Below the pieces are notes generated by a model, which was given only the letters and a program-made list of their open reading frames with translations, was not told the origin of the DNA and searched no databases. Shown here one piece after another: positions 27,701-64,000 of a stretch of DNA of 64,000 bases. This stretch comes from Limnomonas spitsbergensis (taxonomy: Eukaryota > Chlorophyta > Chlorophyceae > Chlamydomonadales). The stretch lies in contig JAYJMM010000100.1 of assembly GCA_037349105.1 (NCBI GenBank), positions 3,125,001-3,189,000 of the forward strand, written 5' to 3'. Made by a program: the position numbers and the translations under genes. How positions within the stretch are numbered: the stretch's first letter is position 1; every line of letters begins with the position of its first letter.

Positions 27701-30700
27701 CCCTTGACACTAAACTCAGCACCAGGACTACACCCCCCAACGTCATGATTCAGGCTAGATGTAAACTCGAAACCCTCACATCACCGCCAGGACTAGCCCC
27801 ATCAACTTCGTGGTCAACAGTGGATTTAAACTCTGAACCCTCAGCTCATTGCCAGGACACGCCCCCGCAAACATCATTTATTGGGGTTTATCTTAACTCC
27901 CAGGCCTTTACTCACCACCAAGTTTAGCCCCCACAAGCTTTGTCGTTTAAGCTTGATCTAAACTCTTCACCCTTAACTCACCACCAAGTGTAGCCCATAC
28001 AACCTTCATCGTTAAGGCTGGACCTGCACTCATCACCCGGAACTCACCACCAATACCATAGCCCTACAAACATAATAATTTAGGGTTTATCCAAACTCTT
28101 AACTCACTCTTCACCCTGAACTCACCGCCAGGCCCAGTCCCACAAGCTCCAACGTCGATGCGTCTGCCTGGTAGCCAGCCCACCACGCAGCCACAGGCTG
28201 TTTCGTAAATCCTGCCTCCAGTACGGCCCCACTCCAATCAGCAGCAACCGAGACGTGGTCAACGAATGAGCCATCACCCCTGCCGCTGCCCTCAAATGTA
28301 TCTCTGAGCCCTATAAAGCTGCCTCCTCCACCTCCGGCCTGCCCAGGTAGCCCCTGCTGGTTGAAGAGGCCCCCAAGGGTCCAGACATGGCCCAGCAGGT
28401 GGCTGTAGAGCGACCCGAAGACCTGGGAAGGGAAGCAGCGGGAGGGCAGCCAAGTGAGGGGGTGGAGGAGAGGAGGCAGCGGGAGGGCAGCCAAGTGAGG
28501 GGGTGGAGGAGAGGAGGCAGCGGGAGAGCAGCCAAGTGAGAGGGTGGAGGAGAGGAGGCAGTGGGAGGGCAGCCAAGTGAGGGGGTGGAGGAGATGAGGC
28601 AGCGGGATGGCAGCCAAGTGAGGGGGTGGAGGAGATGAGGCAGCGGGATGGCAGCCAAGTGAGGGGGGGGAGGAGAGGAGGCAGCGGGAGGGCAGCCAAG
28701 TGAGGGGGTGGAGGAGAGGAGGCAGCGGGAGGGCAGCCAAGTGAGGGGGGGGAGGAGAGGAGGCAGCGGGAGGGCAGCCAAGTGAGGGGGGGGAGGAGAG
28801 GAGGCAGCGGGAGGGCAGCCAAGTGAGGGGGTGGAGGAGAGGAGGCAGCGGGAAGGCAGCCAAGTGAGGGGGTGGAGGAGAGGAGGCAGCGGGAGGGCAG
28901 CCAAGTGAGGGGGTGGAGGAGAGGAGGCAGTGGGAGGGCAGCCAAGTGAGGGGGTGGAGGAGAGGAGGCAGCGGGAGGGCAGCCAAGTGAGGGGGTGGAG
29001 GAGATGAGGCAGCGGGAGGGCAGCCAAGTGAGAGGGTGGAGGAGAGGAGGCAGTGGGAGGGCAGGGGCGGGAGTAGGGGTGGGGCGGCCAATTGCCAGGG
29101 TGGAGGAGAGGAAGCAGTAGGAGGGTGTAGGAGAGGAAGCAGTAGGAGGGTGGAGGAGGGGAAGCAGCGGGAGAGCAGCCAAGTGAAGGGGTGGAGGAGA
29201 GGAGGCAGTGGGAGGGCAGGGGCGGGAGTAGGGGTGGGGCGGCCAATTGCCGGGGTGGAGGAGAGGAAGCAGTAGGAGGGTGGAGGAGAGGAAGCAGTAG
29301 GAGGGTGGAGGAGGGGAAGCAGCGGGAGGGCAGCCAAGTGAGGGGGGGGAGGAGAGGAGGCAGCGGGAGGGCAGCCAAGTGAGGGGGGGGAGGAGAGGAG
29401 GCAGCGGGAGGGCAGCCAAGTGAGGGGGTGGAGGAGATGAGGCAGCGGGAGGGCAGCCAAGTGAGGGGGTGGAGGAGAGGAGGCAGTGGGAGGGCAGCCA
29501 AATGAGGGGGTGGAGGAGAGGAGGCAGCGGGAGGGCAGCCAAGTGAGGGGGTGGAGGAGATGAGGCAGCGGGAGGGCAGCCAAGTGAGAGGGTGGAGGAG
29601 AGGAGGCAGTGGGAGGGCAGGGGCGGGAGTAGGGGTGGGGCGGCCAATTGCCAGGGTGGAGGAGAGGAAGCAGTAGGAGGGTGTAGGAGAGGAAGCAGTA
29701 GGAGGGTGGAGGAGGGGAAGCAGCGGGAGAGCAGCCAAGTGAGGGGGTGGAGGAGAGGAGGCAGTGGGAGGGCAGGGGCGGGAGTAGGGGTGGGGCGGCC
29801 AATTGCCGGGGTGGAGGAGAGGAAGCAGTAGGAGGGTGGAGGAGAGGAAGCAGTAGGAGGGTGGAGGAGGAGAAGCAGCGGGAGGGCAGCCAAGTGAGGG
29901 GGTCGAGGAGATGAGGCAGTGGGAGGGCAGGGGCGGGAATAGGGGTAGGGCGGCCAATTGCCGGGTAGGAGGAGAGGGAGCAGTAGGAGGGTGTAGGAGG
30001 GGAAGCAGCGGGAGGGCGACCAATTGAGGGGACGAAGGAGGGTAAAAGCCAGCAAGAGGGCATCAAATAAGGGGGGTGGAGGAGGGGCAATCACAAATCA
30101 CGACCAGCTTCCCCCCCTTTGCGCCAGCCCCTTCCACCCCTCCCCATCTCGCCCAACTTAGACCCACCAACAGAGCCCCCATTATTGTGATTAGAGCGCC
30201 AAACAGCGATCCCCAACTAAGCAACTGGCCAATCAACAGGCACTCCATTCACATCGCTCCATCCCACTCCATCTCGCCCCACCCAGACCCACCAACAGAG
30301 CTCCGATTATCGTAATGAGAGCGCCAAGCAGCGACCCCCGTCCGGGCAACCGGCCATTGAACAGGGACTCCATGAGAAGGGCGAAGGTTGGGCTTGTGAA
30401 GAAGAGAGCAGTTGCATTATGGACACCCGCCAGCTGTGACGTTGAAGGGGAGGGGGGTGGAGGGCATACATTTGTATCCATGGTTTCCTGACGGGCCTTC
30501 ACTAGGGCATCATTTCATTTTCCGAGGGTCAAGGGGTTGGGACAGGTCCCGAACCCCTTGGCTATGAATAGCAAGTATGAGGATGGCAGCCCAGACCAAT
30601 TGGGAGGCTGCAGGATATGATAGTTGGAGAGAGGGCAGCATGAAAAGGAGGGGTAAACAACCAACAAAGACTGACACTGCTGTAGTGCTCATGCGTAAAA

Positions 30701-33305: not shown

Positions 33306-34206
33306 GATTTATGAGATTGTTGTGATTGCTTCAGAAGCATTCATGCATCTTTCTCAGGTCACACAAAAATGCGGGCATGGACACAAATTATTGACAACAG
33401 AGTAGGTCCACCTCTTTTCCCTCCCTACTGATACTAGGACAGCCAACCAAATACAGTTCTGAGTACAGAAGATTCGAATTGCCTTCCTCATAACTAACTT
33501 TGTTTACCGTAGAGGGGCGGGTTAATTGATAATACGAAAACTTGCCATGTCAACGCCAGATTCAGTCAAATAATTGAGATTTGTTGTCCCAATTTGGCCC
33601 GAGGGAAGCATACAATATACAACAAATTGACATCTGAGGCAATTCAAATCTATGGTACGCCAATCAGACTGCTGCATTCATACTGCATGGCGTAGTGTGA
33701 CGCAAGAGTGGCCGAGGGGATGCTGGAGCATTACCGGTTTGCAGTGCATGGACTTAAACGGAACAATGCCCCTACATATCATGCGATCCGTATCCTTTAA
33801 CATGTTACCCGAAAAACCCTGTCATTCACAGTTTGACAGAATTCATGTCAATATCAAGATGTCCACTCAGAAAGGACCAATGAAATGTACGACACATTGA
33901 CCCATTTATGCAAGGAGGCGCACTCGCTCTATTCACATGCATAAAAAAATCGAAAACCTGGACTCCTGGACAATGCCTACAATACTTTTCAGGACTTGTA
34001 CAAAGTCCTCAATGAGGTCAGCCTGATGACATCTCCCTTCACTCCTTAGTACAGGTCATGATGTACAGTCCCCTCTCATACTCCCAGCATCCTCTTAGCC
34101 ACACTTCCATGAGTGCCAGCCACTCCTGCCTCCATGCTGTATACAGCCCACTCAGCACTACAGCCCCTGTCAGCCATGCAAGCCGACTGCCCTAGTGACC
34201 CGCCCG
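33306..34206. other. 3' flank of AP2 gene copy 1
   Basis: The region is shared with units 2 and 3. Each unit has a private deletion here: unit 2 lacks about 95 bp after CAATATACAACAA, and unit 3 lacks about 270 bp after TTTGCAGTGCA. No conserved open frame spans it. Confidence 0.5.
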
Positions 34207-37200
34207 CTACCCGCCATGCATCAGCACCAATATCTCTGTGAGCATCATCAGGGCCTGTGCCTGAGGGACGCTGTCGGACAGCAATCTCATGACCAGATCA
34301 GTGGCGGGTGAGAGGGACTCGAAAGTCATCTGGATCCCCTCATCCTTCAACCGCACGATGGACAAGTCCATACAGGCAATGATGTTGCACATGGCCTCTG
34401 CACTGACAGCTTCCACATCATCGCTGCCTGCAGCTGATTCACAGTCCTGCATTTGAGACACAACAACCGCTGCTTTGAGAACCTCCCATCCATATGCCAG
34501 GCCAGACAGCCTCAGCAACAGCTTGTACAGCCCATCCGGAAGCTGCCTGGGCTGTCCAGAGTTCTGCAGAGACCCTTGGAGGCACTCAGGCTGATCTCTG
34601 AGAGCAGGAGCAATGCAGGCACACACGATCTTCACATGTGCTGCAGTCATAGCACCAGCTGCATGCTGGTCACTGCTGCCGGGCTGGCCTGACAGCTGCA
34701 CCTGCTGCTGGACCTGGCCACACGCAGCCATGATAACTCCTGTCAATCTCTTAGCCAGCACGGCCCTGTCCTCAGCGTTGGGTAGCTCGGATAACTTGGC
34801 CTCATCCAGGATGCTCATCAGGAGCATTTTATACCCAGCGGGCAGGGGTGGAGGTTTATCCGCGCTTGCCAGCACCTCAATAGCCAGTCGCAGAAGCGCT
34901 TGCGGCGTCCCAATGAACGAGGCCTCGCCGCGTGCTGCTAGGAGGGCCCTGCCATCCACATCTGCTACGCGGCAGGCCAGGTCGGGTAACATGGCAATGA
35001 TCTGCGGCCTACCTTGCAGCACCTCCATCAGATTTACACGAGGGTCCAACGCATCCGCCTCCATCACCGACCTCGCAGCGTCCGTTGACATCCAACTGTG
35101 AGGCAGGTTGCAGGACGCAGCAGTGAAGGCCAACAGGACCTTGCTGCGGCCACTTGCGCTGCCGAAGGTGGAGTCAATCAGCTCGAGGACGGGGGCAATG
35201 TGCTGAATCAGCAGAGCCACTGCTGCCCCTCGGCAAGGATTGGGGGCGTCAGCTGCTAGATCCGTCGGCAAAGCAGATCCTTCAGTTGTTGTTGCTGCGG
35301 TCGCTGGCACAACAGACGCATGATGTCCGGTGGCTTCTGCTGTTGCTGCTGCTGTTGTTTCAGATGCATCAAGCCCAGTGGCCACTGCACCTTCTGGCGC
35401 TGCTGACGTATCAAGATGGTTGGAAGCTGGTACCTCTGCTGATGAACTGACAGCTGCAGTTGCTGCTACTGGAGCAGCTAGACCTGATGCTGCTGGCACT
35501 TCATGCTCACAGGTAGCAACCGCTGCTGCTGGCACGACATAAGGATCATGTGTCGTGGCCGCTGCAGCCTTTGCCGCCGATAACGCATCACGACCGGTGG
35601 TAGTTCTGCCCGCTGCTACTGCTGCTGCTGCTGCCTCTGGAGTCGCGATCAGGTGCCTTTTAGGGTTCACACCCTTCTTGCGACGTGAAGGAGGCTGTTG
35701 GGTCTCAGGGGAATCACCGGCTGTGGTCTGTGGGCAAGAAAGGGGAGAGGCAGGGGAGATGCTATTGTTCATGATGACAGATGGGCATAGAAGAATGGCT
35801 AATTGCATCTACGAGGGAAGGAACTAAATAAAAACTAATAACAAATCCAAGGACGAGGAAATCAGCTTTTCTGCCCAGGAGCTGTGATGCAATGGGGTGC
35901 ATGGCAAAAATATCTGTTCAATTAATGGCGCAACAGGGCACATGAGGAAAACATAGCAACTCTGAGGAAAAGGACGAGTCGCAAATTCAAAATAGCTTAT
36001 CAGTAATTGAGGTGCCTGTAGTGGCGCAATCTAGAACCCACCTCCTGATTGCAGCGCTTGCGTGTGCCCACAGCTGCTCCACTGACAGGGGTTGGCGTAA
36101 GCTGCTGCATGAGAGCCACATCTGCAGCTGCGTCATCCCCCCTGCCAGACGCCTGTGCTGGTGACGAGGCAGGCACTGCGGAAGATGGAATGAGCGTGAG
36201 GGGCTGTGAGCCTGTGGCATCAATGTGTCCCTCTCGAGAGCGTGCAGCCAAGCCTGGCTCAAGAGGCCTATCAGGCTCATGATCTCCCGGCTCCTCATCA
36301 GCCGCATCAGGGCCGTTGTGATGGGCTGGCTGCTGACAGGCCTCTACAACGTGCTTGCTCCGTGAGCTGCTGGCCCTCTTGATCCCCGCCTGCTCATCAA
36401 CAATATAATCACGAGTCTCGCATGCAGTTACCATTGGGGGCCGTAGAGACCTTGCACGGTCCTCGCAAGGCCTGCCCCTCTTCCTCAGGTCTGATGCCGC
36501 CACCACTGCCGCCACTGCTGTAGCAACAACAGTAGCAACTGCTGGAGCAGGAGTAAGAGCAGAAGGAGCGGGGGCCGCCGCCGCCGCTGTAGCAGCAGCA
36601 TCAGGAGCAAGAGTCGAAGGAGCAAGAGCCACCACCGCTGCTATAGCAACACCAGGAGCCGCCGCCGCCGCCGCCGCTGTTGCAGCAGCAGTAGCAGCGG
36701 AAACAGAAGCCGACAGCCCAGCAGCATCAGTAGGATCAGGATCAGGATCAGGATCAGGATCAGGATCAGGATCAGGATCAGGATCAGGATCAGGATCAGG
36801 ATCAGGATCAGGATCAGGACGGGCAGGAATTGGAGCAGTAGCTGGATTTGATAGCCTCTTCGCTGGGTTACGAGCTCCCTCCTGACGGATCCCAGGTCCA
36901 CCCAGCGGGCCAATTGGCTGACCATGGCTCGAGGAGGCATCATGCCTACAAGGCCATGTGGACAGGGATCAGATCAACAGGAAGGGCGCTTGCCTAATGA
37001 GGTCTCTATCAGGGCGAAGCAGCGAAGACTGTTGCAAGGAGTTACATTAGGGGGGGGGCCAGAGAAGAACCAGACAGTATAGAATCTTCAAAATCATGTA
37101 AACTACGAAAAATCAACTGGAAGAAATTTAAGATCAGCTGGTGTGATTCAAGAAAGCAGAAGTAAGGCATCGAAAGTCCCAATAGTAAGCTGAATGCCCA

Positions 37201-38802
37201 CCTTGCTCTTGCTCTCTCTATCCTGTCCCGGGTCTGCTCATCCACCGTGATTGTGGCATCTGCATCCTGGTAGTTGGAGAGAGGGAAGTTGAGCCTGGCA
37301 CTCGGTCCCCATAGAAGGATAGCAGCCTTGTCATAGGCCACTGCTGCTGCTCTCTCGCTTGTGAAGGCGCCTAGGTGTGTACTGCGCCCATGACGCTTAA
37401 TACTGGAATGCCACGTGCACTGGGCCTTCCGGACACTCACGCCACGGAAAGCAGACGCAGGCTGCTTGCAAGGTATGGCCCCCACAGGCAGGCTCCTGTT
37501 GTTGGCTCCTGCCACCGAGGAGCTGGGCCCTTTTAGCGCCCCCTGCATGACACCCAGGCCTGAGGAGCTGCCTGGAGCATGGTCCATCCGCCGACCTGTC
37601 CCGGCTGCAACCACAGGTTGCACCTCATCACCGGGATTCCTTAGATTGCGGAGCATGGCAGCCGTCAGCTGACCCCAGGAGTGGGCAGGTCCTGAGCCAG
37701 GAGGCTGGTGCTGCCGGGCATCATCTGGGTGCGCTTGAAAGCTGGCGTCTCTCAGCTTGAGCTCCAGAACCAGGACTGGCAGGGGGCCAGAGGCCTCATC
37801 CAAGCTCCAGTAACTCATCTCATGGCCCTCAATGATGGACAGCCAGGGCTCATAAGCAGTCAGACCAATGGACGTAGCTGCATGCGCGTTCTGTAGTGTG
37901 ACCTAAACATCAAACATGAAGCAGACCACATCATATAAATGAAATGCATCACATTATATTCATCAGGGCACCCTCAGTATATCCAAGGTGTTATGATGGT
38001 ACCGATATCAGGTACTCGATGGAGTGCAGATCAAAGCAGCCATTGATGTACAATGCCAGGTAGGTACAAGTTTCCGACCAAAAGAGGCTGAGGCATTGGC
38101 CAAGGCATCACATCATTACGCCGCACCCCAGCTCCCACTGAGCCGGCACTCACCTGGTGTTCCCTGAGGCCATAAGGACCCACTTGAACAACGCCACACA
38201 CGCTGAGTCGCAACGGCATGCTGTGCGGGAGCTGGAGGTCATTACCCACCAAGCCACGAAGTCCGGCCACTTTGATACTTTTCGACAGCTGAGGCTTAGG
38301 CTGAGGCGGCCACATGTCCAGCACTATCACCGGCAGCTCTTCATCTGAGGGCGTGTCCAAGCTCCAACCCGTGATCCAGTGAGCCTTAATGGTGGAATAC
38401 CAAGGCTCATGCACGCCCATGTGGGCATCACGTCCTTTATTTCGCCGTAGCACGACCTGCAGGAAAAACACAACTTGCAAAAGCGGCGCATGAAGGCAAT
38501 TGTGGGGAAAAAGGACTCCTTCCTCTCTTGTCACTCTTCACCCGCCTTTAGAAGAACATGGATCACTCCCCCACCTTGTGTTCACCACCATGCGTGACAA
38601 TGCCGCACACTCTGACCCGCAGCAGCACCTCCTTGCATCCATGTTCGTTCAATCCAAGAGAATCGAGCAGGGCCTGAGTCTGCAAACGGATGGTATTTAT
38701 ATCAGAAGGAAGTGGCTGTAGATTCGGATCCCCTTTTAACAACAACTCCTCCAGCTTGTAAGCTCGTCCCGCAGGAGCAGTGGCAGGACACGGCCTCTTC
38801 AT
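34207..38802 (-). CDS. AP2-domain protein, copy 1 (5 exons, 1,218 aa)
   Basis: Exons: 38802-38575, 38456-38154, 37902-37202, 36945-36042, 35727-34207; all phases agree. The start is the first ATG (MKRPCPATAPAG); a further 5' exon cannot be excluded. Residues about 58-135 and 152-225 are two copies of one domain (VCGIV..GEHK/VVL..EPWYSTIKAHW..WSLD and VCGVV..REHQ/VTL..EPWLSIIEGHE..WSLD). The AP2 domain lies at about 325-390, with SAFRGVS, THLGAFTSERAAAVAYDKAA and ARLNFP. A (Pro-Asp)n run follows near 453, then Ala/Pro-rich sequence, an AT-hook-like KRGRP, and a basic patch (SRRKKG) at the start of exon 5. The last 380 residues are helical and unrecognised. AP2 proteins bind DNA, so this is probably a nuclear transcription regulator. 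The first DNA-contact strands of AP2 differ sharply from copy 2. Confidence 0.85.
36733..36826. repeat. ATCAGG hexanucleotide microsatellite coding for Pro-Asp
   Basis: About 15-16 perfect GGATCA units lie in exon 4 of AP2 copy 1. They encode an acidic (Asp-Pro) run. In copy 2 the same place (55130-55205) has a shorter perfect run followed by GGAGCA-interrupted units, so length and purity have changed since duplication. The frame is kept in both. Confidence 0.95.
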
Positions 38803-39752
38803 GTCGTAGCCAGAAGCTGCTGACCTGGGCTGGGCCCTGACAGCGTGTAGCAAGACAAGTAAAGATTAGTAATGAGCCCTCCTCAGTTGTAAGAATGCGA
38901 TGCTGCACTGAACTGCTAAAGTTTACACAACTTCACATGCAGCTACAGGCTCTGAGGCACGCACCATCAAGGTTTCATGTTTCAGTATTCGAGGCTCATG
39001 CATGCCCGGTATACCAGGCTCACTGATTCTCTCGTCTATTCCATGCAATGAGGCTGATAAACTATGTGCTCGTTATGTGTACCTGGATCTGCGTGATAAT
39101 CGTGGCCCTTGATTGGTTGAGCTGCTCGGAAGATCGAGTACGCGCTATCTTTATGAGGCAGAGATAGAACAAGACTCTTCAAGCGTGGCTTTCAAAACTT
39201 TGATTCATCGGATACCAATCTATTTCGCAGGGATAACTTCAGTGAGCGTCCTAGGGAGTTGGGGGAATGACAAGTCATCAGAGGTGCTGCTGCGCAGCAC
39301 GAAAAACGGCAGAGCAGTCGGGTACGTGACATTTCAGAGGGCAGGCGCAGCCAGGTGCGGACGGGGTCACCTGGACCCCATGCAAACCCCCTCGCCATGT
39401 TGCAGGATTTCAAAATATTTGTCACAACTCTATCGCTGGCTAAGTGCGTGTTTTTAATGATGCGTATCGAATTGCGCATAGAGAAGCGAAGCCACAGCTG
39501 TCGGCCTGTCGCGTGACACCAGGGGACAGCGTGACGACACCTTACGTCATCCGCTGTGAGATCCAGCCCTGGTAGCTGAGTTTCTCATTTCTGCACCTCG
39601 GCCTTTGAGGTCTGACAGGAATAACCTTCATAAATACAGCCGGTTGATTTGCGCGGTAGCGCATAAAGTTTCCGTGACGTTCCAGAAACATCAGGCGGAC
39701 GGACGGACGGACGGACGGAAACGGGTGGAAACTGGGGGCATCGCCCCCCAGA

Positions 39753-40564
39753 TATCGATCTCCCTTAAAAACGTACTTTTACTCTCCAACGTTTCAGTCA
39801 AATGACATGGCATTATTTGCCAACGTTGGCAAGTGAGTGACGTCATTTTTTCCGAAGTCCGTCATCTTTGAAGAGGAGCGCATGCCATTAAATAATTGCA
39901 TTACTTGTTATTTATCGACCTCGATTCCGATCGTACCAAGTGCCCAGAGGGCCTCCATGGAAGCGGGGGTGTTGCAGGCGAGGGTGGACTAATCGCTGCT
40001 GCAGCCCATCCTGAGGCGCGATTATCTTAAGCTGTAGGTACTACTTTTACAGCTATGAAGCGTGCCTGAACCTCTGCCTGCTACAAGAGCATTCACTGCA
40101 TTTTGGTGTGCAGTTTCGGCCCACATGCACAGCATTGAGCCAGCTAACACAGCATCCCACCCTTTTGGGCAACATCTTGCATGCATGCGCAGCTTTCACC
40201 AGTACTGACAGCCCCCGAATGCATGCACAGCCCCCCGCATGCATGCACGGTACCCCGCCCGCTTGCTCTGATGGACTGTAAAAACTTCACAAAATTTCAC
40301 CGCTTGCATGCACAGCTCCCACCCACATACACTCTGCCTACATGCACACACCCATGCCTACATGCACAGCATCCCGCCTGCTTGCGGAGCACCCCACACG
40401 CCTACGCATTCCTTGCATGCATATGTCCATGCCTGCATTCACATCACGTAGCCGCGCTCGCGACCCTCCACCTGCATTCTCAGCTCCTTCCCACATGCAA
40501 ACACCCCGCCTGCATGCACACTGCCCCCGCTTGCACGCACAGCCGCCTGGCGCCTGCCAATATG
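39753..40564 (+). repeat. Left arm of the long inverted repeat
   Basis: The arm runs from TATCGATCTCCCTTAAAAAC through GCCAACGTTGGCAAGTGAG and TCGATTCCGATCGTACCAAG to GCGCCTGCCAATAT. Its last 400 bp are a ragged CATGCACAGC-type repeat. Each of these motifs recurs in reverse complement in the right arm in the same order. Confidence 0.9.
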
Positions 40565-41850: not shown

Positions 41851-42109
41851 TCCCCACCTTTTAATTTGTATTTTTTAAGCGGATTCACTGTGCAGACTAT
41901 ATTGCCTAGCCATGCCCTTTGTTTCATGATGTTTGAGGCACCTTCATTTTGCTTGATATGCACGAGACATGCCTCTCAAGGCTTTGAGCGGGGCTTCTGA
42001 CTGAAATCTTGGTTTCCTGTTTTCCCCTCGAAAATTGTACAGTTCAGGATTCATGTGACGGTATTACGGCTTCAGATTTATTTCATCACAATTACGCTGC
42101 TTTGCTCCA

Positions 42110-42960
42110 GGTATGCCACTCTAGGAGACCCAAGCAAGGCTGAATACTGAAATTTTAATTATGCTGATGCACCCTAGACATGCCACTCTAGGAGACCCGA
42201 GGAGGTCTCTAAACTGAAATCTTAATTATGCTGATGCGCCCAGGTATGCACCATAGGAGACGTGAGCAAGGCTTTAGACAGAAATCTTAATTATGCTGAT
42301 GCGCCCCAGGCATGCCACTCTAGGAGTCCCAAGCATGACTCCATACTGAACCTTAATTATGCTGATGCGCCCCAGGCATGCCACTCTAGGAGACCCAAGC
42401 ATGACTCCATACTGAACCTTAATTATGCTGATGCGCCCCAGGCATGCCACTCTAGGAGACCCAAACTGGGCTCCATACTGAACCTTAATTATGCGGATGC
42501 GCCCCAGGCATGCCACTCTAGGAGACCCAAACTGGGCTCCATACTGAACCTTAATTATGCTGATGCGCCCCAGACATGCCACTCTAGGAGACACAAGCAT
42601 GGCTCAATACTGAACCTTAAGCATGCTGATGCGCCCTAGACATGCCACTTTAGGAGACCCAAGCAGGGTTTTAGACTGGAATCTTAATTATGCTGATGCG
42701 CCCTAGACATGCCACTCTAGGAGACGTGAGCAATGCTGTAGACTGAAATCTTAAATATGTTGATGAGCCACAAGCATGCCACTCGAGGAATCCCAAGCAC
42801 GGGGTTAAACTGAAATCTAATTTGTGTCGATGCCCCTAGGCTTGCCACTCTATGAGACCCAAGCTGGGCTGTAAACTGGAATCATAAATGCACTGATGCA
42901 CTCCCAGCATGTTACTCTAGAAGACCCAAGCTGGGTTGAAGGTTGAAATCTTGAGTGTGG
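42110..42960. repeat. 66-bp tandem array, about 13 copies
   Basis: The unit contains GGCATGCCACTCTAGGAGAC and CTTAATTATGCTGATGCGCC. The middle copies (42375, 42441, 42507) are nearly identical with an exact 66-bp step; the outer ones are diverged. As 66 is a multiple of three, the plus strand reads as a 22-residue repeat with LNYADAPQACHSRR, most likely without meaning. Confidence 0.95.
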
Positions 42961-43271
42961 ATCCCTGTGATACTGTTATGCCATTGAGGGATACTGTTGC
43001 TAAGCTACTTTCACTGGGTAAGGCTGTTGAGTCAAGTTCAAAACCACTGTATATTACATGACGGAAACCTCAATATTGGCGGAAATACGAGCCAAGCATA
43101 GACTACTGAAGACAGGCTGAAGTTTTTTTGTCACTTCGCAAAGAAGCGCTCCCCTGACTCCTTCTCCCTCTGAACTGTGTTAATGTGGTGCACACAGTAC
43201 CGCACGCACAGAAGGAAAACAATATGAGACATGTATCCGCAGTTGCTCTCCAAACTCCTGATAAGTTTTGG

Positions 43272-44478: not shown

Positions 44479-46724
44479 ATATTGGCAGGCGGGGGGCAGT
44501 GCGTATGCGGTCGGGGTGTTTGCATGTGGGAAGGAGCTAAGAATGCAGGTGGAGGGTCGTGAGCGCGGCTACGTGATGTGAATGCAAGCTAGGACCTGTG
44601 CATGCAAGGAATGCGCATGCGTGTGGGGCGCTCTGCAAGCAGGCAGGATGCTGTGCATGTGGGCAGGGGTGTGTGCATGTAGGCAGTGTGCATGTGGGTG
44701 GGAGCTGTGCATGTAAGCGGTGCGCATGTGGCCGGGGGGTAGTCCGGTAGTGCATGCAAGCGGGCGGGGTAACGTGCATGCATGCGGGGGGCTGGGCATG
44801 CATTCGGGGCTGTCAGTACTGGTGAAAGCTGCGCATGCATGCAAGATGTTGCCCAAAAAGGGTGGGATGCTGTGTTCGCTGGCTCAATGTGCATATGGGC
44901 TGAAACAGCACACCAAAATGAAGTGAATGCTCTTGTAGCAGGCAGAGGTTCAGGCACGCTCCATACCAGTAAAGAGATAGATAATCGCGCCTCAGGATGG
45001 GCTGCAGCAGCGATTAGTCCACCCTCGCCTGCAACACCCCCGCTTCCATGGAGGCCCTCTGGGCACTTGGTACGATCGGAATCGAGGTCGATAAACAACA
45101 AGTAATGCAATTATTTAATGGCATGCGCTCCTCTTCAAAAATGACGGACTTAGGAAAAAATGACGTCACTCACTTGCCAACGTTGGCAAAAAAAAAAATG
45201 GTGAGTGTCGTAAGCGACAGCGTTAGATTCTAACGCGTTAGAGGGTTTCAGGGTTCGGAGGGGCGCGTTGGGCGAGGAAGAGTGACGGACTTCTAAGGAA
45301 TGCGCCTGTATATGTTCCTGAAGGCTAACAAATGACAAGCCTTGCCGGAAACAGGACCATAAGCTAACGTGCTGATTTGAACGCCAACGAGCAGGACGGC
45401 CGCGAGTGGAGGTGGGCACTGTCGTCGCATCCGCCAAGCATGGCGACACTGTTGACGCATCGGTGCCTCGGATGTGACTAGGTGAGGCGCTAAACATGGG
45501 CTACGATGCGCGTGGAGGCGACAGTGTCGAATTAAAAGAAGAGTTACGCTTTGCTCCAGGTTGCCACGTTGATTATGATGTGTTGTGTTACGCAGAAGTT
45601 GGGGAGGCGAGCGAGCCAGAACACGCGAGACTGAAGGGACAAGCAAGGAAGGAAGCAACAGCAATGTCGGCATGAGAGGTGAGTGAATTCCAATCGAATT
45701 CAACTGGGTGGAATCCACTGTTGTGCGCGAGCGCCGAGGCACACGCCATGCTTTTGAATTACGTGCCCTGGTTACTACTTCCCATGATTTCGTGTCCTGG
45801 TTACCTCCCATGATCAAGACCAAATGCCATTGTCATTGACGGCAGGAAACGTCAACAATTGGACACATGGTTACAGTTCATGGCCACGACCAAGCTCGGC
45901 AAGGACGTCCTGACGGTGAGTTCGACCAGGCAGGGGTTCGACCCAGGAATCCACATGAAGTCCATTCGGCATGTTGCCATCTCAGTGATTTCCAGAAATG
46001 CGACACGCACTGCCCCTGAATAATGGTAGCCTGATGCGTTAAAAGTTGACATGATGCTTAGCTCTGTGATGATGCATAGGGAATACTGAAGTGTTGCGGG
46101 AGCGCGAACGTTTGCCATTGGCTTCCTGTTAAAAAAATAGGCCGAACGAAATCACTTGACCTGAGCGATGTCGCAACACCTGTCACAGATGCTCGAGAAG
46201 ATGGAGAGGGCGATTCGAGATCGAGGAGCTCAATCAAGACTGACATGACTGAGCTGGCTGCCGTGGAAAGAGCATGGCAGAGTACATACCGTAGTAGCAT
46301 TGTCTCGTCGCCCCTGTTTTTTGTTATGGCCGCATGGGCCTGAATACCGTATGGACGTTGCTATCACCAAATGATATTTTACTAATTTGCTGGCCATGGA
46401 ATTGGCACGGATGAGTTTTGTGTTCGGTACTTCGGTTTTGTGTGTACTCTCTCCCTTGGTTGCTTCGTTGGCCCAAATTACCTCACAAGGGCGTTGGTAT
46501 CGAAAAAAATGATGTAACTGGAGCTGAACTTAGAAAAATCTGGAATCTAACGTCTAACATCTAACATCTAACGCTCTGACCCATATAAGGTTATATAACC
46601 ATATAAGGTTATATAACCATATAAGGTTATATAACCATTATGAAATGATAGCGTTCTAATGCCATGTCATTTCATTTGACTGAAACGTTGGAGAGTAAAA
46701 GTACGTTTTTAAGGGAGATCGATA
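44479..46724 (-). repeat. Right arm of the long inverted repeat (interrupted)
   Basis: It is the reverse complement of 39753-40564, from ATATTGGCAGG to GTACGTTTTTAAGGGAGATC. Positions 45191-46656 have no counterpart in the left arm and are a later insertion. Confidence 0.9.
45191..46656. mobile_element. 1,466-bp insertion inside the right arm
   Basis: The left arm reads GCCAACGTTGGCAAATAATGCCATG in reverse order without a break, whereas the right arm is split after TTGGCAAA. The insert begins with a run of A and AGCGTTAGATTCTAACG, and near its end has TCTAACGTCTAACATCTAAC followed by three copies of an 18-bp CCATATAAGGTTATATAA unit. The GCGTTAGAT motifs are inverted with respect to each other near both ends. 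No gene was recognised. Confidence 0.7.
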
Positions 46725-52762: not shown

Positions 52763-55700
52763 CTACCTGCCATGCATCAGCACCAATATCTCGGTGAGCA
52801 TCATCAGGGCTTGTGCCTGAGGGACGCTGCTGGACAGCACTCTCATGATCAGATCAGTGGCGGGTGAGAGGGACTCGAAAGTCATCTGGATCCCCTCATC
52901 CTTCAACCGCACGATGGACAAGTCCATACAGGCAATAATGTCGCACATGGCCTCTGCACAGACAGCTTCCACATCATCGCTGCCTGCAGCTGATTCAGTG
53001 TCCTGCATTTGAGACACAACAACCGCTGCTTTGAGCACTTCCCAACCATATGCCAGGCCAGACAGCCTCAGCAACAGCTTGTACAGCCCATCCGGAGGCT
53101 GCCTGGGCTGTCCAGAGTTCTGAATAGACCCCTGGCGGCACTCAGGCTGATCTCTGAGAGCAGGAGCAATACAGGCACACACGACCTTGACACGTGCCGC
53201 AGTCATAGCGCCAGCTGCATGCTGGTCACTGCTGCCGGGCTGGCCTGACATCTGCACCTGCTGCTGGACCTGGCCACACGCAGCCATGACCACTCCTGTC
53301 AGTCTCTTAGCCAGCACGGCCCTGTGCTCAGCGTTGGGTAGCTCGGATAACTTGGCCTCATCCAAGATGCTCATTAGGAGCATTTTACAGCCAGCAGGCA
53401 GGGGTGGAGGTTTATCCGCACATGCCAGCACCTCAATAGCCAGTCGCAGAAGCGCTTGCGGCGTCCCAATGAACGAGGCCTCGCAGCGTGCTGCTAGGAG
53501 GGCCCTGCCATCCACATCTGCTACGCGGCAGGCCAGGTCGGGACCTTGCTGCGGCCACTTGCGCTGCCGAAGGTGGAGTCAATCAGCTCGAGGACGGGGG
53601 CAATGTGCTGAATCAGCAGAGCCACTGCTGCCCCTCGGCAAGGATTGGGGGCTTCAGCTGCTAGATCCGCCGGCAAAGCAGATCCTTCAGTTGTTGTTGC
53701 TGCGGTCGCTGGAACAACAGACGCATGATGCCTGGTGGCTGCTGTTGCTGCTGTTGTTGCAGATGCATCAAGCCCAGTGGCCACTGCACCTTCTGGCGCT
53801 GGATCAAGATGGTTGGAAGCTGGTACCTCTGCTGATGGACTGACAGCTGCAGTTGCTGCTACTGGAGCAGCTAGACCTGATGCTGCTGGCACTTCATGCT
53901 CACTGGTAGCAACCGCTGCTGCTGGCACGACATAAGGATCATGTGTCGTGGCCGCTGCAGCCTTTGCCGCAGATAACGCATCACGACCGGTGGTAGTTCT
54001 GCCCGCTGCTACTGCTGCTGCTGCTGCCTCTGGAGTCGCGATCAGGTGCCTTTTAGGGTTCACACCCTTCTTGCGACGTGAAGGAGGCTGTTGGGTCTCA
54101 GGGGAATCACCGGCTGTGGTCTGTGGGCAAGAAAGGGGAGAGGCAGGGGAGATGCTATTGTTCATGATGACAGATGGGCATAGAAGAATGGCTTATTGCA
54201 TCTACGAGGGAAGGAACTAAATAAAAACTAATAACAAATCCAAGGACGAGGAAATCAGCTTTTCTGCCCAGGAGCTGTGATGCAATGGGGTGCATGGCAA
54301 AAATATCTGTTCAATTAATGGCGCAACAGGGCACATGAGGAAAACATAGCAACTCTGAGGAAAAGGACGAGTCGCAAATTCAAAATAGCTTATCAGTAAT
54401 TGAGGTGCCTGTGGTGGCGCAATCTAGAACCCACCTCCTGATTGCAGCGCTTGCGTGTGCCCACAGCTGCTCCACTGACAGGGGTGGGCGTAAGCTGCTG
54501 CATGAGAGCCACATCTGCAGCTGCGTCATCCCCCCTGCCAGACGCCTGTGCTGGTGACGAGGCAGGCACTGCGGAAGATGGAATGAGCGTGAGGGGCTGT
54601 GAGCCTGTGGCATCAATGTGTCCCTCTCGAGAGCGTGCAGCCAAGCCTGGCTCAAGAGGCCCATCAGGCTCATGATCTCCCGGCTCCTCATCAGCCGCAT
54701 CAGGGCCGTTGTGATGGGCTGGCTGACAGGCCTCTACAACGTGCTTGCTCCGTGAGCTGCTGGCCCTCTTGATCCCCGCCTGCTCATCAACAATATAATC
54801 ATGAGTCTCGCATGCAGTTACCATTGGGGGCCGTAGAGACCTTGCACGGTCCTTGCAAGGCCTGCCCCTCTTCCTCGGGTCTGATGCCGCCACCACTGCC
54901 GCCACTGCTGTAGCAACAACAGTAGCAACTGCTGGAGCAGGAGTAAGAGCAGAAGGAGCGGGGGCCGCCGCCGCCGCTGTAGCAGCAGCATCAGGAGCAA
55001 GAGTCGAAGGAGCAAGAGCCACCACCGCTGCTATAGCAACACCAGGAGCCGCCGCCGCCGCCGCTGTTGCAGCAGCAGTAGCAGCGGAAACAGAAGCCGA
55101 CAGCCCAGCAGCATCAGTAGGAGCAGGATCAGGATCAGGATCAGGATCAGGATCAGGATCAGGATCAGGATCAGGAGCAGGATCAGGAGCAGGATCAGGA
55201 GCATGAGCATGAGCAGGAGCAGGAGCAGGAGCAGGACGGGCAGGCATTGGAGCAGTAGCTGGATTTGATGGCCTCTTCGCTGGGTTACGAGCTACCTCCT
55301 GACGGATCCCAGGTCCACCCAGCGGGCCAATTGGCTGACCATGGCTCGAGGAGGCATCATGCCTACAAGGCCATGTGGACAGGGATCAGATCAACAGGAA
55401 GGGCGTTTGCCTAATGAGGTCTCTATCAGGGCGAAGCAGCGAAGGCTGTTGCAAGGAGTTACATTAGGGGGCCAGAGAAGAACCAGACAGTATAGAATCT
55501 TCAAAATCATGTTAAACTACTAAAAAAACTGGAAGGAATTTAAGATCAGCTGGTGTGATTCAAGAAAGCAGAAGTGAGGCATCGAAAGTCCCAATAGTAA
55601 GCTGAATGCCCACCTTGCTCTTGCTCTCTCTATCCTGTCCCGGGTCTGCTCATCCACCATGATTGTGGCATCTGCATCCTGGTAGTTGGAGGGAGGGAAG

Positions 55701-57210
55701 TTGAGCCTGGCAATCGGTCCCCATAGAAGGATAGCAGCCTTGTCATAGGCCACTGCTGCTGCTCTCTCGCTTGTGAAGGTGCCTAGGTGTGTACTGCGCC
55801 CATGCCGCTTATTCCTGGAATACCACTTGCCCTTGGCCTTGTGGTAACTCACGCCACGGAAAGCAGACGCAGGCTGCTTGCAAGGTATGGCCCCCACAGG
55901 CAGGCTCCGGTTGTTGGCTCCTGCCACCGAGGAGCTGGGCCCTTCTAGCGCCCCCTGCATGACACCCAGGCCTGAGGAGCTGCCAGGGGCATGGTCCATC
56001 CGCCGACCTGTCCCGGCTGCAACCACAGGCTGCACCTCATCACCTGGATTCCTTAGATTGCGGAGCATGGCGGCTGTCAGAAGACCCCAGGAGTGGGCAG
56101 GTCCTGAGCCAGGAGGCTGGTGCTGCCGGGCATCGTCTGGGTGCGGTTGAAGGCTAGCGTCTCTCGGCTTGAGCTCCAGAACCAGGACTGGCAGGGGGCC
56201 AGAGGACTTATCCAAGCTCCAGTTACTCATCTCATGGCCCTCAATGATGGACAGCCAGGGCTCATAAGCAGTCAGACCAATGGACTTACCTGCATTCGCC
56301 TTCTGCAGTGTGACCTAAACATCAAACATGAAGCAGACCACATCATATATATGAAATGCATCACATTATATTCATCAGGGCACCCTCAGTATATCAAAAG
56401 TATTATGATAGCACCGATATCAGGTACTCGATGGAGTGCAGATCAAAGCAGCCATTAATGTACAATGCCAGGTAGGTACAAGTTTCCAACCAAAAGAGGC
56501 TGAGGCATGGGCAGAGGCATCACATCATTATGCCGCACCCCAGCTCCCACTGAGCCGGCACTCACCTGGTGTTCCCTGAGGCCATAAGGACCCACTTGAA
56601 CAACGCCACACACGCTGACTCGCAACGGGATGCTGTGCGGGAGCTGGATGTCCTTTCCCATCACGCCACGAAGCCCGGCCACCTTGATCCTTTTCGACAG
56701 CTGAGGCTTAGGCTGAGGCGGCCACATGTCCAGCACTATCACCGGCAGCTCTTCATCTGAGGGCGTGTCCAAGCTCCAACCCGTGATCCAGTGGGCCTTA
56801 ATGGTGGAATACCAAGGCTCATGCACGCCCATGTGGGCATCACGTCCTTTATTTCGCTGTAGCACGACCTGCAGGAAAAACACAACTTGCAAAAGCGGCG
56901 CAGGAAGGTAATTGTGGGGGAAAAGGACTCCTTCCTCTCTTGTCACTCTTCACCCGCCAAAGAACATGGATCACTCCCCCACCTTGTGTTCACCACCATG
57001 CGTGACAATGCCGCACACTCTGACCCGCAGCAGCACGTCCTTGCATCCAAGTTCGTTCAATCCAAGAGAATTGAGCAGGGCCCGAGTCAGCAACCGGATG
57101 GTATTTATATCACAAGGAAGTGGCTGCAGATTCGGAGCCCCTTTGGACAACAACTCCTCCAGCTTGTAAGCTCGTCCCGCAGGGGCAGTTGCAGGACACG
57201 GCCTCTTCAT
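52763..57210 (-). pseudogene. AP2-domain protein, copy 2, broken by a 151-bp deletion
   Basis: Exons at the same junctions as copy 1: 57210-56983, 56868-56566, 56314-55614, 55362-54435, and last exon 54120-52763. Exons 1-4 are open, with identical lengths for exons 1-3 and 24 bp more in exon 4. In the last exon the bases matching 34987-35137 of copy 1 are missing: GTCGGG is joined to ACCTTGCTG at about 53542. This shifts the frame and puts a stop at 53521, leaving a protein of about 928 aa that lacks most of the C-terminal helical part. The AP2 domain here has the more standard contact strands (GVSYHKAKGKWYSRNK). A shortened protein that still binds DNA is possible, so calling it dead is an inference. 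Confidence 0.8.
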
Positions 57211-57880
57211 GTCGTAGCCAGAAGCTGCTGACCTGGGCTGGGCCCTGACAGCGTGTAGCAAGACAAGTAAAGATTAGTAATGAGCCCTCCTCAGTTGTAA
57301 AAATGCAATGCTGCACTGAACTGCTAAATTTTACACAACTTCACATGCAGCTACAGGCTCTGAGGCACCATCAAGGTTTCATGTTTCAGTATTCGAGGCT
57401 CATGCATGCCCGGTATACCAGGCTCACTGATGCTCTCGTCTATTCCATGCAATGAGGCTGATAAACTATGTGCTCGTTATGTGTACCTGGATCTGCGTGA
57501 TAATCGTGGCCCTTGATTGGTTGAGCTGCTCGGAAGATCGAGTACGCGCTATCTTTATGAGGCAGAGATAGAACAAGACTCTTCAAGCGTGGCTTTCAAA
57601 ACTTTGATTCATCGGACACTAATCTATTTCGCAGGGATAACTTCAGTGAGCGTCCTAGGGAGTTGGGGGAATGAAAACAGACCGGAAGCGGTTGATTAAA
57701 TTTTGCGAAACCCTCGCTCGTGGTAGTTGGTACCGTTATCGATCATGGCTTGGGTAAGCTAAAAGCGCAACACGATGCTGAGAGAAAACGACGGCCTTGA
57801 AAACAGAGATGCTTTCTGCTTGATAGCTATTTAACGAAGTCACAACGCTGTGGATACCCCGAAAAAACACCCGAGTACAT
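57211..57880. other. 5' flank of AP2 gene copy 2
   Basis: The region holds the likely promoter of copy 2 and matches 38803-39270 of unit 1 closely, then crosses the empty insertion site at about 57673. A plus-strand frame beginning MVELLGRSSTRYLYEAEIEQ is shared by both units up to the insertion site. It ends soon after and shows no domain. Confidence 0.5.
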
Positions 57881-60960: not shown

Positions 60961-63900
60961 CCGGGCGCTGCCACTAACTTCCACCAGCTGTACCAGGCTG
61001 AGCAGGGGTGGGATGCACTTGCTTTTGTGGACTGTGTTGTGGGCATTGTTGAGGGTTAGTCTCTCGGGATTCTGAGGCGCCAGTGTCGTTTGCCTTTCCG
61101 GCCTTCTCTTTGGTCATTTTTTTGCCCCCTTTTTAGTTTCTTCTCTTCTCCCTTCTGATCAGTGGGGCGCCCTCGCGGCCAAGCAGGGGCAGGATACGCT
61201 TGCTTTTGTGGACTTTTCTTTCTTAGAGGCTTTGTTGAGGGCTAGTCTCTAGTGGAACTCAGATGTTGGACTTGGTCTTCTTTGCCTTCCCGGCCTCTCC
61301 TTTTGTTCCTTTCCCCCCTCTTCCTTTTAGTTTCTTCTTTTCTCCCTTCTGAACAGTTGGGCGCCCACGCGGTCGAGCTTTGAGCGTGCCCAAAGGTGTA
61401 ACGTTATTGACAGATCTAACAGAAGGGATCATGGTTGCTCGGTGGTTGGTCTCCCGTGTGTTGTGCAAAAAGCAAGAAAGCCGGGAATGGGTGTGTGGAT
61501 ACCATAAGCTCCCTAGTGCAGGTTGCCAAAGGAGCAAGGCTTGCTGCACTGTGCCCCAAGGTAATTGGGCTGGGATGTAGCTATATTGTAGCTGGAGCAG
61601 CCTGGATTTATGTCCCAGCGTACAAGATCAACTTCAGGAGGAGATGGGAGGCTCCCCCCAGACGGTGTTAGATACTTCCAAGCCTTGTCCCTTCACTCCC
61701 CCCCCCTTTTATTGACCAACTGCCCGGTAGGTTTATTTATATCCTGTATGTACAGGGCTAAGATCTGAACGGGCTGGGGATTCTTCAGACTTCCATGACT
61801 AGTTGGTGTGGTATTTCCCTTCACCTCATTACGGCTGTTACTTTGTCCTTTAGCCTTAAGATTGTTTTCCTACCGACCAGAAAGTCGTGCACACAGGCGA
61901 CCGAGCCTTTTGAGCATGGCCCATAGGTGTTTTGTCATGGACCCTGGATGTATGGGACTCTTGTTATCGCTTCAGACGTATTTATGTATTTTGTTTCTTT
62001 CTCAGGCCACACAAAATGCGGGCATGGACATAAATTATTGAAAACAGAGTAGGTCCACCTCTTTTCCCTCCCTGCTGATACTACTGATACTAGTACGGCC
62101 AACCAAACACAGTTCTGAGTACAGAAGATTAGAATCGCCACATCATAATTAACTTTCTTTATGGGTGAGGTATTATTTAATATACGAATTCTTGCCATGT
62201 CAACGAGATGTCAATGCCAGTTTCATTCAAATCTGTAGTTGTTGTCCCAATTTGGCCTGAGGGAAGCATACAATATACAGCAAATTGACATCTGAGGCAA
62301 TAATTCAAATCTATGGTACGCCAATCAGACTGCTGTATTCAGACTGCATGGTGCAGTGTGACGCAAGAGTGGCCGAGGGGATGCTGGAGCATTACCGGTT
62401 TGCAGTGCAGTATAAAATCCTCAATGTGGTCAGCCAAATGACATCTCCATTCACTCCTTAGTACAGGTCATGATGTACAGTCCCCTCTCATACTCCCAGC
62501 TTCCTCTTAGCCACACTTCCATGAGTGCCAGCCACTCCTGCCTCCATGCTGGATACAGCCCACTCAGCACTACAGCCCTGTCAGCCATGCAAGCCGACTG
62601 CCCTAGTGACCCGCCCGCTACCCGCCATACATCAGCACCAATATCTCTGTGAGCATCATCAGGGCCTGTGCCTGAGGGACGCTGTCGGACAGCACTCTCA
62701 TGACCAGATCAGTGGCGGGTGAGAGGGACTCGAAAGTCATCTGGATCCCCTCATCCCTCAACCGCACGATGGACAAGTCCATACAGGCAATGATGTCGCA
62801 CATGGCCTCAGCACTGACAGCTTCCACATCATGGCTGCCTGCAGCTGATTCAGAGTCCTGCATTTGAGATGCAACAACCGCTGCTTTGAGCACCTCCCAT
62901 CCATATGCCAGGCCAGACAGCCTCAGCAGCTGTTTGTACAGCCCATCCGGAGGCTGCCTGGGCTGTCCAGAGTTCTGAATAGACCCCTGACGGCACTCAC
63001 GCTGATCTCTGAGAGCAGGAGCAATACAGGCACACACGACCTTGACACGTGCCGCAGTCATAGCGCCAGCTGCATGCTGGTCACTGCTGCCGGGCTGGCC
63101 TGACAGCTGCACCTGCTGCTGGACCTGGTCACACGCAGCCATGACCACTCCAGTCAGTCTCTTAGCCAGCACGGTCCTGTCCTCAGCGTTGGGTAGCTCG
63201 GATAACTTGGCCTCATCCAGGATGCTCATCAGGAGCATTTTATACCCAGCAGGCAGGGGTGGAGGTTTATCCGCACATGCCAGCACCTGAATAGCCAGTC
63301 GCAGAAGCGCTTGCGGCGTCCCAATGAACGAGGCCTCGCCGCGTGCTGCCAGAAGGGCCCTGCCATCCACGCCTGCTACGTGGCAGGCCAGGTCAGGTAA
63401 CATGGCAATGATGTGCGGCCGGCCTTGCAGCACCTCCATCAGATTTACACGAGGGTCCAACGCATCCGCCTCCAGCACCGACCTCGCAGCGTCCGTTGAC
63501 ATCCAACTGTGAGGCAGGTTGCATGACGCAGCAGTGAAGGCCAACAGGACCTTGCTGCGGCCACTAGCGCTGCCAAAGGTGGAGTCAATCAGCTCAAGGA
63601 CGGGGGCAATGTGCTGAATCAGCAGAGCCACTGCCGCCCCTCGGCAAGGATTGGGGGCGTCAGCTGCTAGATCCGCCGGCAAAGCAGATCCTTCAGTTGT
63701 TGTTGCTGCGGTCGCTGGCACAACAGACGCATGATGCCTGGTGGCTGCTGTTGCTGCTTCTGTTGTTTCAGATGCATCAATCCCAGTGGCCACTGCACCT
63801 TCTGGCGCTGCTGACGTATCAAGATGGTTGGAAGCTGGTACCCCTGCTGATGGACTGACAGCTGCAGTTGCTGCTACTGGAGCAGCTAGACCTGATGCTG

Positions 63901-64000
63901 CTGGCACTTCATGCTCACAGGTAGCAACCGCTGCTGCTGGCACGACAGAGGGATCATGTATCGTGGCCGCTGCAGCCTTTGCCGCCGTTAACGCATCACG
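60115..64000. repeat. Segmental duplication, unit 3 (cut by the window edge)
   Basis: The unit starts with the same CCCCATGTGCGTGTTTTCGTGG marker. It follows unit 2 closely through the retrotransposon 3' part and spacer into the AP2 gene. It has its own deletion near 62408 and retains a segment (CAAATTGACATCTGAGGCAA) that unit 2 lost but unit 1 kept. Confidence 0.85.
62618..64000 (-). CDS. AP2-domain protein, copy 3 (last exon, partial)
   Basis: The frame matches the last exon of copy 1 from its stop codon upward and stays open to the edge of the window, so the 5' part of this exon and exons 1-4 lie outside. It keeps the 151-bp segment deleted in copy 2 (LLAFTAASCNLPHSW to PDLACHVAGVDG). Only scattered substitutions separate it from copy 1 (for example LADVDG/VAGVDG-type changes). 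The C-terminal helical region is therefore under some constraint or only recently duplicated. Whether this copy has an AP2 domain cannot be seen. Confidence 0.8.
   Translation of the reverse strand, partial: RDALTAAKAAAATIHDPSVVPAAAVATCEHEVPAASGLAAPVAATAAVSPSAGVPASNHLDTSAAPEGAVATGIDASETTEAATAATRHHASVVPATAATTTEGSALPADLAADAPNPCRGAAVALLIQHIAPVLELIDSTFGSASGRSKVLLAFTAASCNLPHSWMSTDAARSVLEADALDPRVNLMEVLQGRPHIIAMLPDLACHVAGVDGRALLAARGEASFIGTPQALLRLAIQVLACADKPPPLPAGYKMLLMSILDEAKLSELPNAEDRTVLAKRLTGVVMAACDQVQQQVQLSGQPGSSDQHAAGAMTAARVKVVCACIAPALRDQRECRQGSIQNSGQPRQPPDGLYKQLLRLSGLAYGWEVLKAAVVASQMQDSESAAGSHDVEAVSAEAMCDIIACMDLSIVRLRDEGIQMTFESLSPATDLVMRVLSDSVPQAQALMMLTEILVLMYGG

What the first reader, a model, noticed from the sequence alone, without database searches (positions are those of the whole stretch)
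37389..37440. Local burst of change in the AP2 DNA-contact strands between gene copies
Copy 1 (37389-37440) and copy 2 (55801-55852) differ at 11 of about 50 bases, 10 of them changing the amino acid (V/Y, R/H, Q/K, C/G, T/K, H/Y, S/R, I/N). Flanking coding sequence is nearly identical. The changed residues lie on the first beta strands of AP2, which contact DNA. Copy 2 keeps the standard pattern; intact copy 1 does not. This may be diversifying selection, gene conversion from a third copy, or a switch in target site.
Basis: partly seen in the sequence, partly recalled or inferred. Interest (0 to 1): 0.8.

Follow-up and report, generated by a model that had tools for sequence, protein, structure and literature searches.

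The report
Fast-evolving DNA-reading face in AP2 genes
In a green alga, a cluster of duplicated gene-regulator genes keeps changing exactly those amino acids expected to touch DNA while the rest stays much more constant, which suggests that the copies are being selected to recognise different DNA sequences.

Summary
Between copies 1 and 2, 11 of 117 differences in 4,106 aligned columns fall in one 52-column stretch; 0 of 5,000 permutations reach that. It is one pair from a larger pattern: the host genome (260 Mb, green lineage) holds seven related loci in one array on this contig and more elsewhere. In 11 AP2 domains with open frames, codons aligned to the DNA-contact residues of solved AP2-DNA complexes have omega 4.3 (LRT against 1: 50.8), other beta-strand codons 1.2, the rest 0.57. 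In six array copies M2a beats M1a by 2dlnL 48.6; the largest of 57 neutral simulations is 6.6. In copies 1-3, beta-strand nonsynonymous divergence is 3.6-4.6 times intron divergence; over all 15 pairs it is 24% against 17%. So this is recurrent diversifying selection on the DNA-reading face, not a one-off change in copy 1. No conversion donor was found. Other exons also carry selected codons, and a second AP2 family here shows a weaker form. Altered DNA targets, and an arms race with mobile DNA, are inferred and untested. Closest analogue: KRAB/FiNZ zinc-finger clusters of animals.

The parts
37202..37902 (-). Copy 1 AP2 exon (second copy of the N-terminal module plus the AP2 domain)
   Evidence: GT-AG borders; AP2 by Pfam, weak, 17.1 bits; matches PDB AP2 domains WRI1 and ERF1
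37393..37434 (-). Copy 1 divergent tract: codons 157-170 of the exon, strands beta1-beta2 of AP2
   Evidence: 11 differences to copy 2, 0 of 5,000 permutations; codon table
55614..56314 (-). Copy 2 AP2 exon
   Evidence: Pfam AP2 31.5 bits; PDB WRI1 3e-17; splice sites
55805..55846 (-). Copy 2 counterpart of the divergent tract
38154..38456 (-). Copy 1 first module exon, related to the start of the AP2 exon
   Evidence: tblastn to AP2 exon 38-44% identity; conserved GT-AG introns; M2a LRT 16.2
56566..56868 (-). Copy 2 first module exon
38575..38766 (-). Copy 1 upstream exon (part; start not determined)
   Evidence: M2a LRT 18.0
56983..57174 (-). Copy 2 upstream exon (part)
36000..36635 (-). Copy 1 Ala-rich ORF with RKRGRP (AT-hook-like, motif recalled) at 36468-36485; exon borders not determined
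54393..55030 (-). Copy 2 Ala-rich ORF with RKRGRP at 54858-54875
34207..35808 (-). Copy 1 C-terminal ORF, 533 aa, open; no Pfam or PDB match
52763..54201 (-). Copy 2 C-terminal exon, lacks 151 nt at about 53541 relative to copy 1, frame broken
62618..64000 (-). Copy 3, C-terminal part; its AP2 exon lies past the window at G000:C100:3190564-3191259

Best explanation
A tandemly amplified family of AP2-domain proteins whose DNA-contact face is under recurrent diversifying selection. SHOWN: the array and dispersed copies; shared exon order in most array copies and conserved GT-AG introns before the AP2 exon in six; excess of amino-acid change at codons aligned with the DNA-contact residues of solved AP2-DNA complexes, above the synonymous rate, and above the intron rate in the closest copies; conservation of core residues (F152, G154, W164, G178, F180 invariant in 11 domains). 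INFERRED: that the copies still bind DNA, that these changes alter the sequence bound, and that duplication followed by selection gives a repertoire of different specificities. MORE SPECULATIVE (about 0.35): the driver is conflict with mobile DNA or viruses, as for KRAB/FiNZ zinc-finger proteins, with the AP2 face doing the recognising and the rest of the protein (repeated N-terminal module, AT-hook-like segment, C-terminal region) supplying a shared effector function.
For: Six array copies, Nei-Gojobori pooled dN/dS: 1.88 in codons 152-180, 0.64 in codons 1-147, 0.78 in 181-233. Site models on codons 1-225 with two topologies: M1a/M2a 2dlnL 48.6 and 52.8; M8a/M8 48.8 and 52.8; about 8-9% of codons with omega 7-8.6. 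Parametric bootstrap under M1a: 0 of 57 reach 48.6, maximum 6.6. Eleven AP2 domains: LRT 50.4; codons with posterior of 0.75 or more are 153, 156, 158, 161, 165, 167, 169, 174, 175, 179; contact set omega 4.33 against 1.18 for other beta codons and 0.57 elsewhere; entropy of contact columns 2.06 against a domain mean of 0.98, permutation p 5e-5, within-beta p 0.009. Four versions of the contact set on two trees all give omega 3.3-6.1, LRT 34-59; the non-contact beta set does not differ from 1. Closest trio: beta N-site divergence 16-27% against intron 4-6%, one-sided Fisher p 0.003, 1.7e-6, 4e-4; N-sites outside beta do not differ from introns. Contact residues from PMC7593309 and PMC12249877 (passages read).
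Against: Selected codons also occur outside AP2: codons 9, 10, 13, 78, 148, 219 of the same exon, in the two upstream exons (LRT 16.2, 18.0) and weakly in the C-terminal exon (10.3), so DNA contact is not the only target. The intron yardstick weakens with distance: over all 15 pairs beta N-site divergence is 24% against 17% in introns, higher in 12 of 15 pairs and not in c1-A5, c3-A7, A6-A7. A second AP2 family in this genome has contact omega 1.67 (LRT 5.1) and M2a LRT 16.6, so the signal is not unique to this family. Several copies are damaged: copy 2 C-terminus, a TAG in A4's module exon and in the C-terminal matches of A4 and A6, a TGA in one of C119a, broken AP2 frames in C15a, C15b, C110, C120a; no C-terminal match was found for A7. 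Some selected codons (157, 175) are not contact positions. Contact mapping is by alignment; no confident model (pLDDT 56). No outgroup species, expression or binding data; exchange between copies can inflate site-model tests.
Confidence: 0.75

Rival explanations
1. Gene conversion: the flanks of old duplicates were homogenised, or the copy-1 tract was pasted in from a diverged paralog, leaving an island of old divergence without selection.
For: Divergence between copies 1 and 2 is mosaic, 0 to 11 mismatches per 150 columns within 33784-39273; gene trees differ by region, though with weak support; copy 1 shares 5 tract nucleotides with A5 against copies 2 and 3.
Against: No better donor found; copy 1 has private states inside the tract; conversion alone does not raise nonsynonymous over synonymous change, nor place it on contact columns.
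Confidence: 0.12
2. Relaxed constraint: the AP2 domains no longer bind DNA and the face decays.
For: Copy 1 scores only 17 bits against Pfam AP2; several family members carry stops or frame breaks.
Against: Relaxation gives omega near 1, not 3-6, and would hit core residues too; five core residues are invariant and, in copies 1-3, rates exceed intron rates.
Confidence: 0.07
3. Selection is real but acts on another property, such as protein partners or general affinity, rather than on target sequence.
For: Selected codons outside AP2 and at non-contact beta positions.
Against: The strongest signal coincides with base-contact columns (strict base set omega about 6.1).
Confidence: 0.15
4. Sequencing or assembly error, or a local mutation hot spot.
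For: None found; reads were not available.
Against: The same columns vary in 11 domains at separate places, their frames are open, and change is mostly nonsynonymous: 20 of 31 codons (150-180) vary in residue, 1 varies silently only. A mutation hot spot would not favour contact columns within the strands.
Confidence: 0.02

Closest known systems
KRAB and FiNZ zinc-finger gene clusters of vertebrates
   Same: Tandem lineage-specific amplification with positive selection on DNA-contacting residues (PMC5363842 and PMC10547256, passages read)
Plant AP2/ERF superfamily (WRI1, TEM1, AtERF1/ERF100, AtERF96)
   Same: AP2 domain by sequence
   Different: In plant ERF/DREB proteins the contact residues are described as conserved (PMC12249877 and PMC7593309, passages read); here the aligned positions are on average far more variable than the domain. 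The N-terminal module and C-terminal region matched nothing in the searches made
CBF/DREB1 tandem genes of Arabidopsis
   Same: Tandem AP2 duplicates studied by population genetics (PMC2588587, seen only in the search listing with the start of its abstract)
   Different: Whether it reports on contact residues was not checked; paper not read

Membership tests
AP2/ERF domain | Pfam PF00847 score at or above the gathering cut-off 33.3 | tested here: inconclusive
   Copy 2: 31.5 bits as an ORF, 34.7 in the genome search; copy 3: 29.6; copy 1: 17.1 and not listed
AP2/ERF domain | Sequence match to solved AP2 domains | tested here: met
   WRI1 7wq5 E 3e-17 (copy 2) and 2e-16 (copy 1); ERF096, ERF1, TEM1 weaker
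AP2/ERF domain | Three strands then a helix | tested here: inconclusive
   Predicted order strand-strand-strand-helix, but pLDDT 56 and no AP2 structure among the 50 VIA-align rows shown
Plant ERF/DREB subfamily | Conserved Arg at R150, R152, R162, R170 and Trp at W172 of AtERF1 | tested here: not met
   Aligned codons 156, 158, 169, 174, 176 hold S/C/Y/H/T, H/R/S/M/V, K/R/H/E/N/Q/S/T, S/D/P/A/M/Q/I, H/Y/S/Q; Arg in 3 of 11 at 158 and 1 of 11 at 169
KRAB/FiNZ-like rapidly evolving DNA-binding family (works like) | Tandem clusters of recent paralogs | tested here: met
   Array on C100, 3.16-3.23 Mb
KRAB/FiNZ-like rapidly evolving DNA-binding family (works like) | Positive selection at DNA-contact residues | tested here: met
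KRAB/FiNZ-like rapidly evolving DNA-binding family (works like) | Binding to and repression of mobile elements | not testable with these tools
   No binding or expression data
KRAB zinc-finger proteins (member of) | C2H2 fingers and KRAB box | tested here: not met
   Pfam scan of ten window ORFs gave only AP2 (two ORFs) and one match far below its cut-off to a repeat-rich family; the upstream exons of the gene were scanned only in part

The most novel reading that the evidence does not exclude
Green algae have evolved, independently of animal zinc-finger proteins, an expanding repertoire of AP2 proteins whose beta-sheet is a hypervariable DNA-reading surface, renewed by duplication and selection to track changing DNA parasites (transposons or viruses).
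Probability: 0.3. Interest if true: 0.92.

Novelty: new variant of a known kind. Interest (0 to 1): 0.74.

Why it matters
DNA-contact residues of transcription factors are normally among the most conserved (general knowledge). Repeated selection on them is known mainly for C2H2 zinc-finger families of animals. Finding it in a beta-sheet AP2 domain of an alga would show that this strategy is not tied to zinc fingers or animals, would give a natural set of closely matched AP2 variants for learning the AP2 recognition code, and would point to a possible genome-defence or regulatory-conflict system in algae.

Tried and rejected

Rows left out of the ML: four broken or frame-disrupted copies (C120a, C15a, C15b, C110) and three distant ones (C71a, C71b, C116); used were 6 array copies or 11 AP2 domains. 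The contact set comes from papers but was applied after I had seen the alignment; hence the sensitivity runs. The M1a bootstrap stopped at 57 of 100 planned simulations because of time. The ML code is my own, not PAML; under simulated neutrality its LRT averaged 1.07. The comparison AP2 family was hoped to be a negative control; it was not clean (10 of 13 loci used, contact omega 1.67, deep tree). The intron comparison was first tested on the closest trio only; all 15 pairs are. Papers: ten searches were answered; six bear on selection in AP2 genes and their listings show no title or abstract start on selection at AP2 contact residues in an alga; the other four were about structures, photosystem I and zinc fingers. 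Four papers were opened, passages only.

Full report
WHAT WAS CHECKED. The window is G000:C100:3125001-3189000 of a 260.2 Mb, 124-contig genome. It is eukaryotic and of the green lineage: the genome has 111 matches to the chlorophyll a/b-binding family, and the one examined matches green-algal LHCII structures (7pi0, 287 bits, which I recall as Dunaliella). Entry 9vfj, listed in a paper on Euglena (PMC12577709, listing only), ranks first by summing several domains, but its best single domain gives 224 bits. The genome also holds an ERF-type AP2 domain with the canonical plant pattern (loci L001, L002). The species was not identified. The window contains a tandem segmental duplication: 35136-39273 matches 53541-57677, 33727-34986 matches 52283-53542, and a third copy begins at the window's end.

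THE TRACT. Copies 1 and 2 align with 117 mismatches in 4,106 columns; 11 fall within 37393-37434, and no permutation of 5,000 gives 11 in 52 columns. Nine codons differ and eight change the residue. Two smaller clusters exist at 38237-38277 and 37874-37894, so this is the sharpest of several.

THE FAMILY. A six-frame search of the genome with the copy-2 AP2 exon gives 42 matches at E up to 0.01, fragments and distant AP2 domains included. On contig C100 they form an array: copies 1, 2, 3 on the minus strand (3162204, 3180616, 3190564), then on the plus strand A4 (two AP2 exons, 3201160-3202606), A5 (3211651), A6 (3222651) and A7 (3233288). Further copies lie on C120 (two AP2 stretches), C119 (two loci), C15 (two), C110 and, more distantly, C71 and C116. 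The order upstream exon, module exon, module plus AP2 exon, Ala-rich stretch with an AT-hook-like RKRGRP (seen in copies 1 and 2), C-terminal exon recurs in the array, except that no C-terminal match was found for A7 and only a partial one for A4. The two introns before the AP2 exon begin GT and end AG in all six aligned copies. The C-terminal ORF is open in copies 1 and 3; copy 2 lacks 151 nt there and is out of frame; single stops occur in the matches of A4, A6 and C119a and in A4's module exon.

THE PATTERN. Across copies 1, 2, 3, A5, A6, A7, 20 of the 31 codons 150-180 vary in residue, 1 varies silently only and 10 are identical; codon 165 has six residues in six copies. Synonymous divergence there is close to that elsewhere (pooled pS 0.14 against 0.11 upstream and 0.16 downstream), while nonsynonymous divergence is higher (pN 0.24 against 0.07 and 0.13); pooled dN/dS is 1.88 in codons 152-180 against 0.64 and 0.78. 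Site models give a class of 8-9% of codons with omega 7-8.6, 2dlnL 48.6 and 52.8 on two topologies; simulations under the nearly neutral model peak at 6.6 in 57 runs. Codons with posterior above 0.8 in AP2 are 156 (one topology only), 157, 163, 165, 167, 169, 174 and 175; outside AP2, codons 9, 10, 13, 78 (one topology only), 148 and 219.

CONTACT RESIDUES. The AtERF96 crystal structure names R16, R19, R21, W23, R31, R39 and W41 as DNA contacts, most shown by mutation to matter (PMC7593309, passages); the OsDREB1A study adds a Glu of strand 2, from an AlphaFold 3 model and a mutant (PMC12249877, passages). Aligned to this family they are codons 153, 156, 158, 161, 169, 174, 176 and 167. In 11 AP2 domains this set has omega 4.33, other beta codons 1.18, the rest of the domain 0.57; the test of omega = 1 for the contact set gives 50.8. 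Using only base hydrogen-bonding positions omega is about 6.1; with another gap placement 3.3-3.4; the non-contact beta set does not differ from 1. Residues F152, G154, W164, G178 and F180 are invariant in these 11.

INTRON YARDSTICK. For the closest trio, introns differ by 4-6%; nonsynonymous sites in codons 152-180 differ by 16-27% (one-sided Fisher p 0.003, 1.7e-6, 4e-4); nonsynonymous sites elsewhere in the exon do not differ from introns. A rate above the intron rate is not expected from relaxed constraint. Over all 15 pairs the contrast shrinks to 24% against 17%; beta exceeds intron in 12 of 15 pairs and not in c1-A5, c3-A7 and A6-A7.

POLARITY AND CONVERSION. Relative to the other five array copies, copy 1 has private nucleotide states in the AP2 part at codons 157, 158, 162 and 179, copy 2 at 161, 167, 168 and 201; copy 1 shares five tract nucleotides with A5 against copies 2 and 3. 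A 71-base probe of the copy-1 tract reported only itself, copy 2 (85%) and A5 (79%) in the genome; that list is not exhaustive, since copy 3 (81% over 104 bases) was not on it. Among the family sequences in hand none is closer than copy 2 at 89% over 108 bases. Trees differ by region, with weak or unmeasured support, so some exchange between copies is likely, but a pasted tract is not the main cause.

RESULTS AGAINST A SIMPLE STORY. The module exon (LRT 16.2), the upstream exon (18.0) and, weakly, the C-terminal exon (10.3) also have selected codons, so selection is not confined to DNA contact. A second AP2 family in this genome (10 domains of 13 loci given) has contact omega 1.67 (LRT 5.1) and M2a LRT 16.6, with overall omega 0.40; it is far more diverged, so its estimate is less reliable, but it means the trait may be wider than this family. 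Contacts are mapped by alignment; the structure prediction was too weak to use.

HOW IT LIKELY WORKS. Shown: amplification, preserved core residues, and diversifying change concentrated on the expected DNA-reading face. Inferred: copies bind different DNA sequences. More speculative: the changing targets are DNA parasites, by analogy with KRAB and FiNZ zinc-finger clusters, where positive selection on DNA-contacting residues in tandem families is documented (PMC5363842, PMC10547256, passages). The six literature searches that bear on AP2 selection listed no such report for algae; the library lacks most subscription papers.

Noticed in passing
G000:C100:3201160-3202606 and G000:C120:1777398-1779159: Two loci of the family carry two AP2-encoding stretches each (one of C120's is frame-disrupted), so the DNA-reading domain itself may be duplicated inside a gene.
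   Followed up: partly
L004-L007, L037, L040, L057-L059, L061 (C84, C124, C82, C117, C64, C11, C103, C35): A second AP2 family in the same genome also shows elevated change at contact codons (omega 1.67, M2a LRT 16.6).
   Followed up: partly
38575-38766 and 38154-38456: Upstream exons have their own clusters of codons with omega above 1, function unknown.
   Followed up: partly
28111-30090: Minus-strand block of 41-nt and 155-nt tandem repeats that stays open in three frames (659, 600 and 570 aa).
   Followed up: no
42085-42978: 66-nt tandem repeats.
   Followed up: no
39813-40528 and 44492-45193: Inverted repeat arms about 4 kb apart between copies 1 and 2, possibly a fold-back or TIR element.
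   Followed up: no
36596-36855 and 54971-55254: 12-nt repeats, read as (PD)n and (AP)n in the gene's strand, that differ in length between copies 1 and 2.
   Followed up: no
G000 whole genome: 111 matches to the chlorophyll a/b-binding family, many nearly equal in score, with groups on C109 and C110 and several with one TAG inside.
   Followed up: no
L001 and L002 (C29, C75): Two ERF-type AP2 domains with equal scores and the same residues in the aligned part, which may be haplotype copies in the assembly.
   Followed up: no
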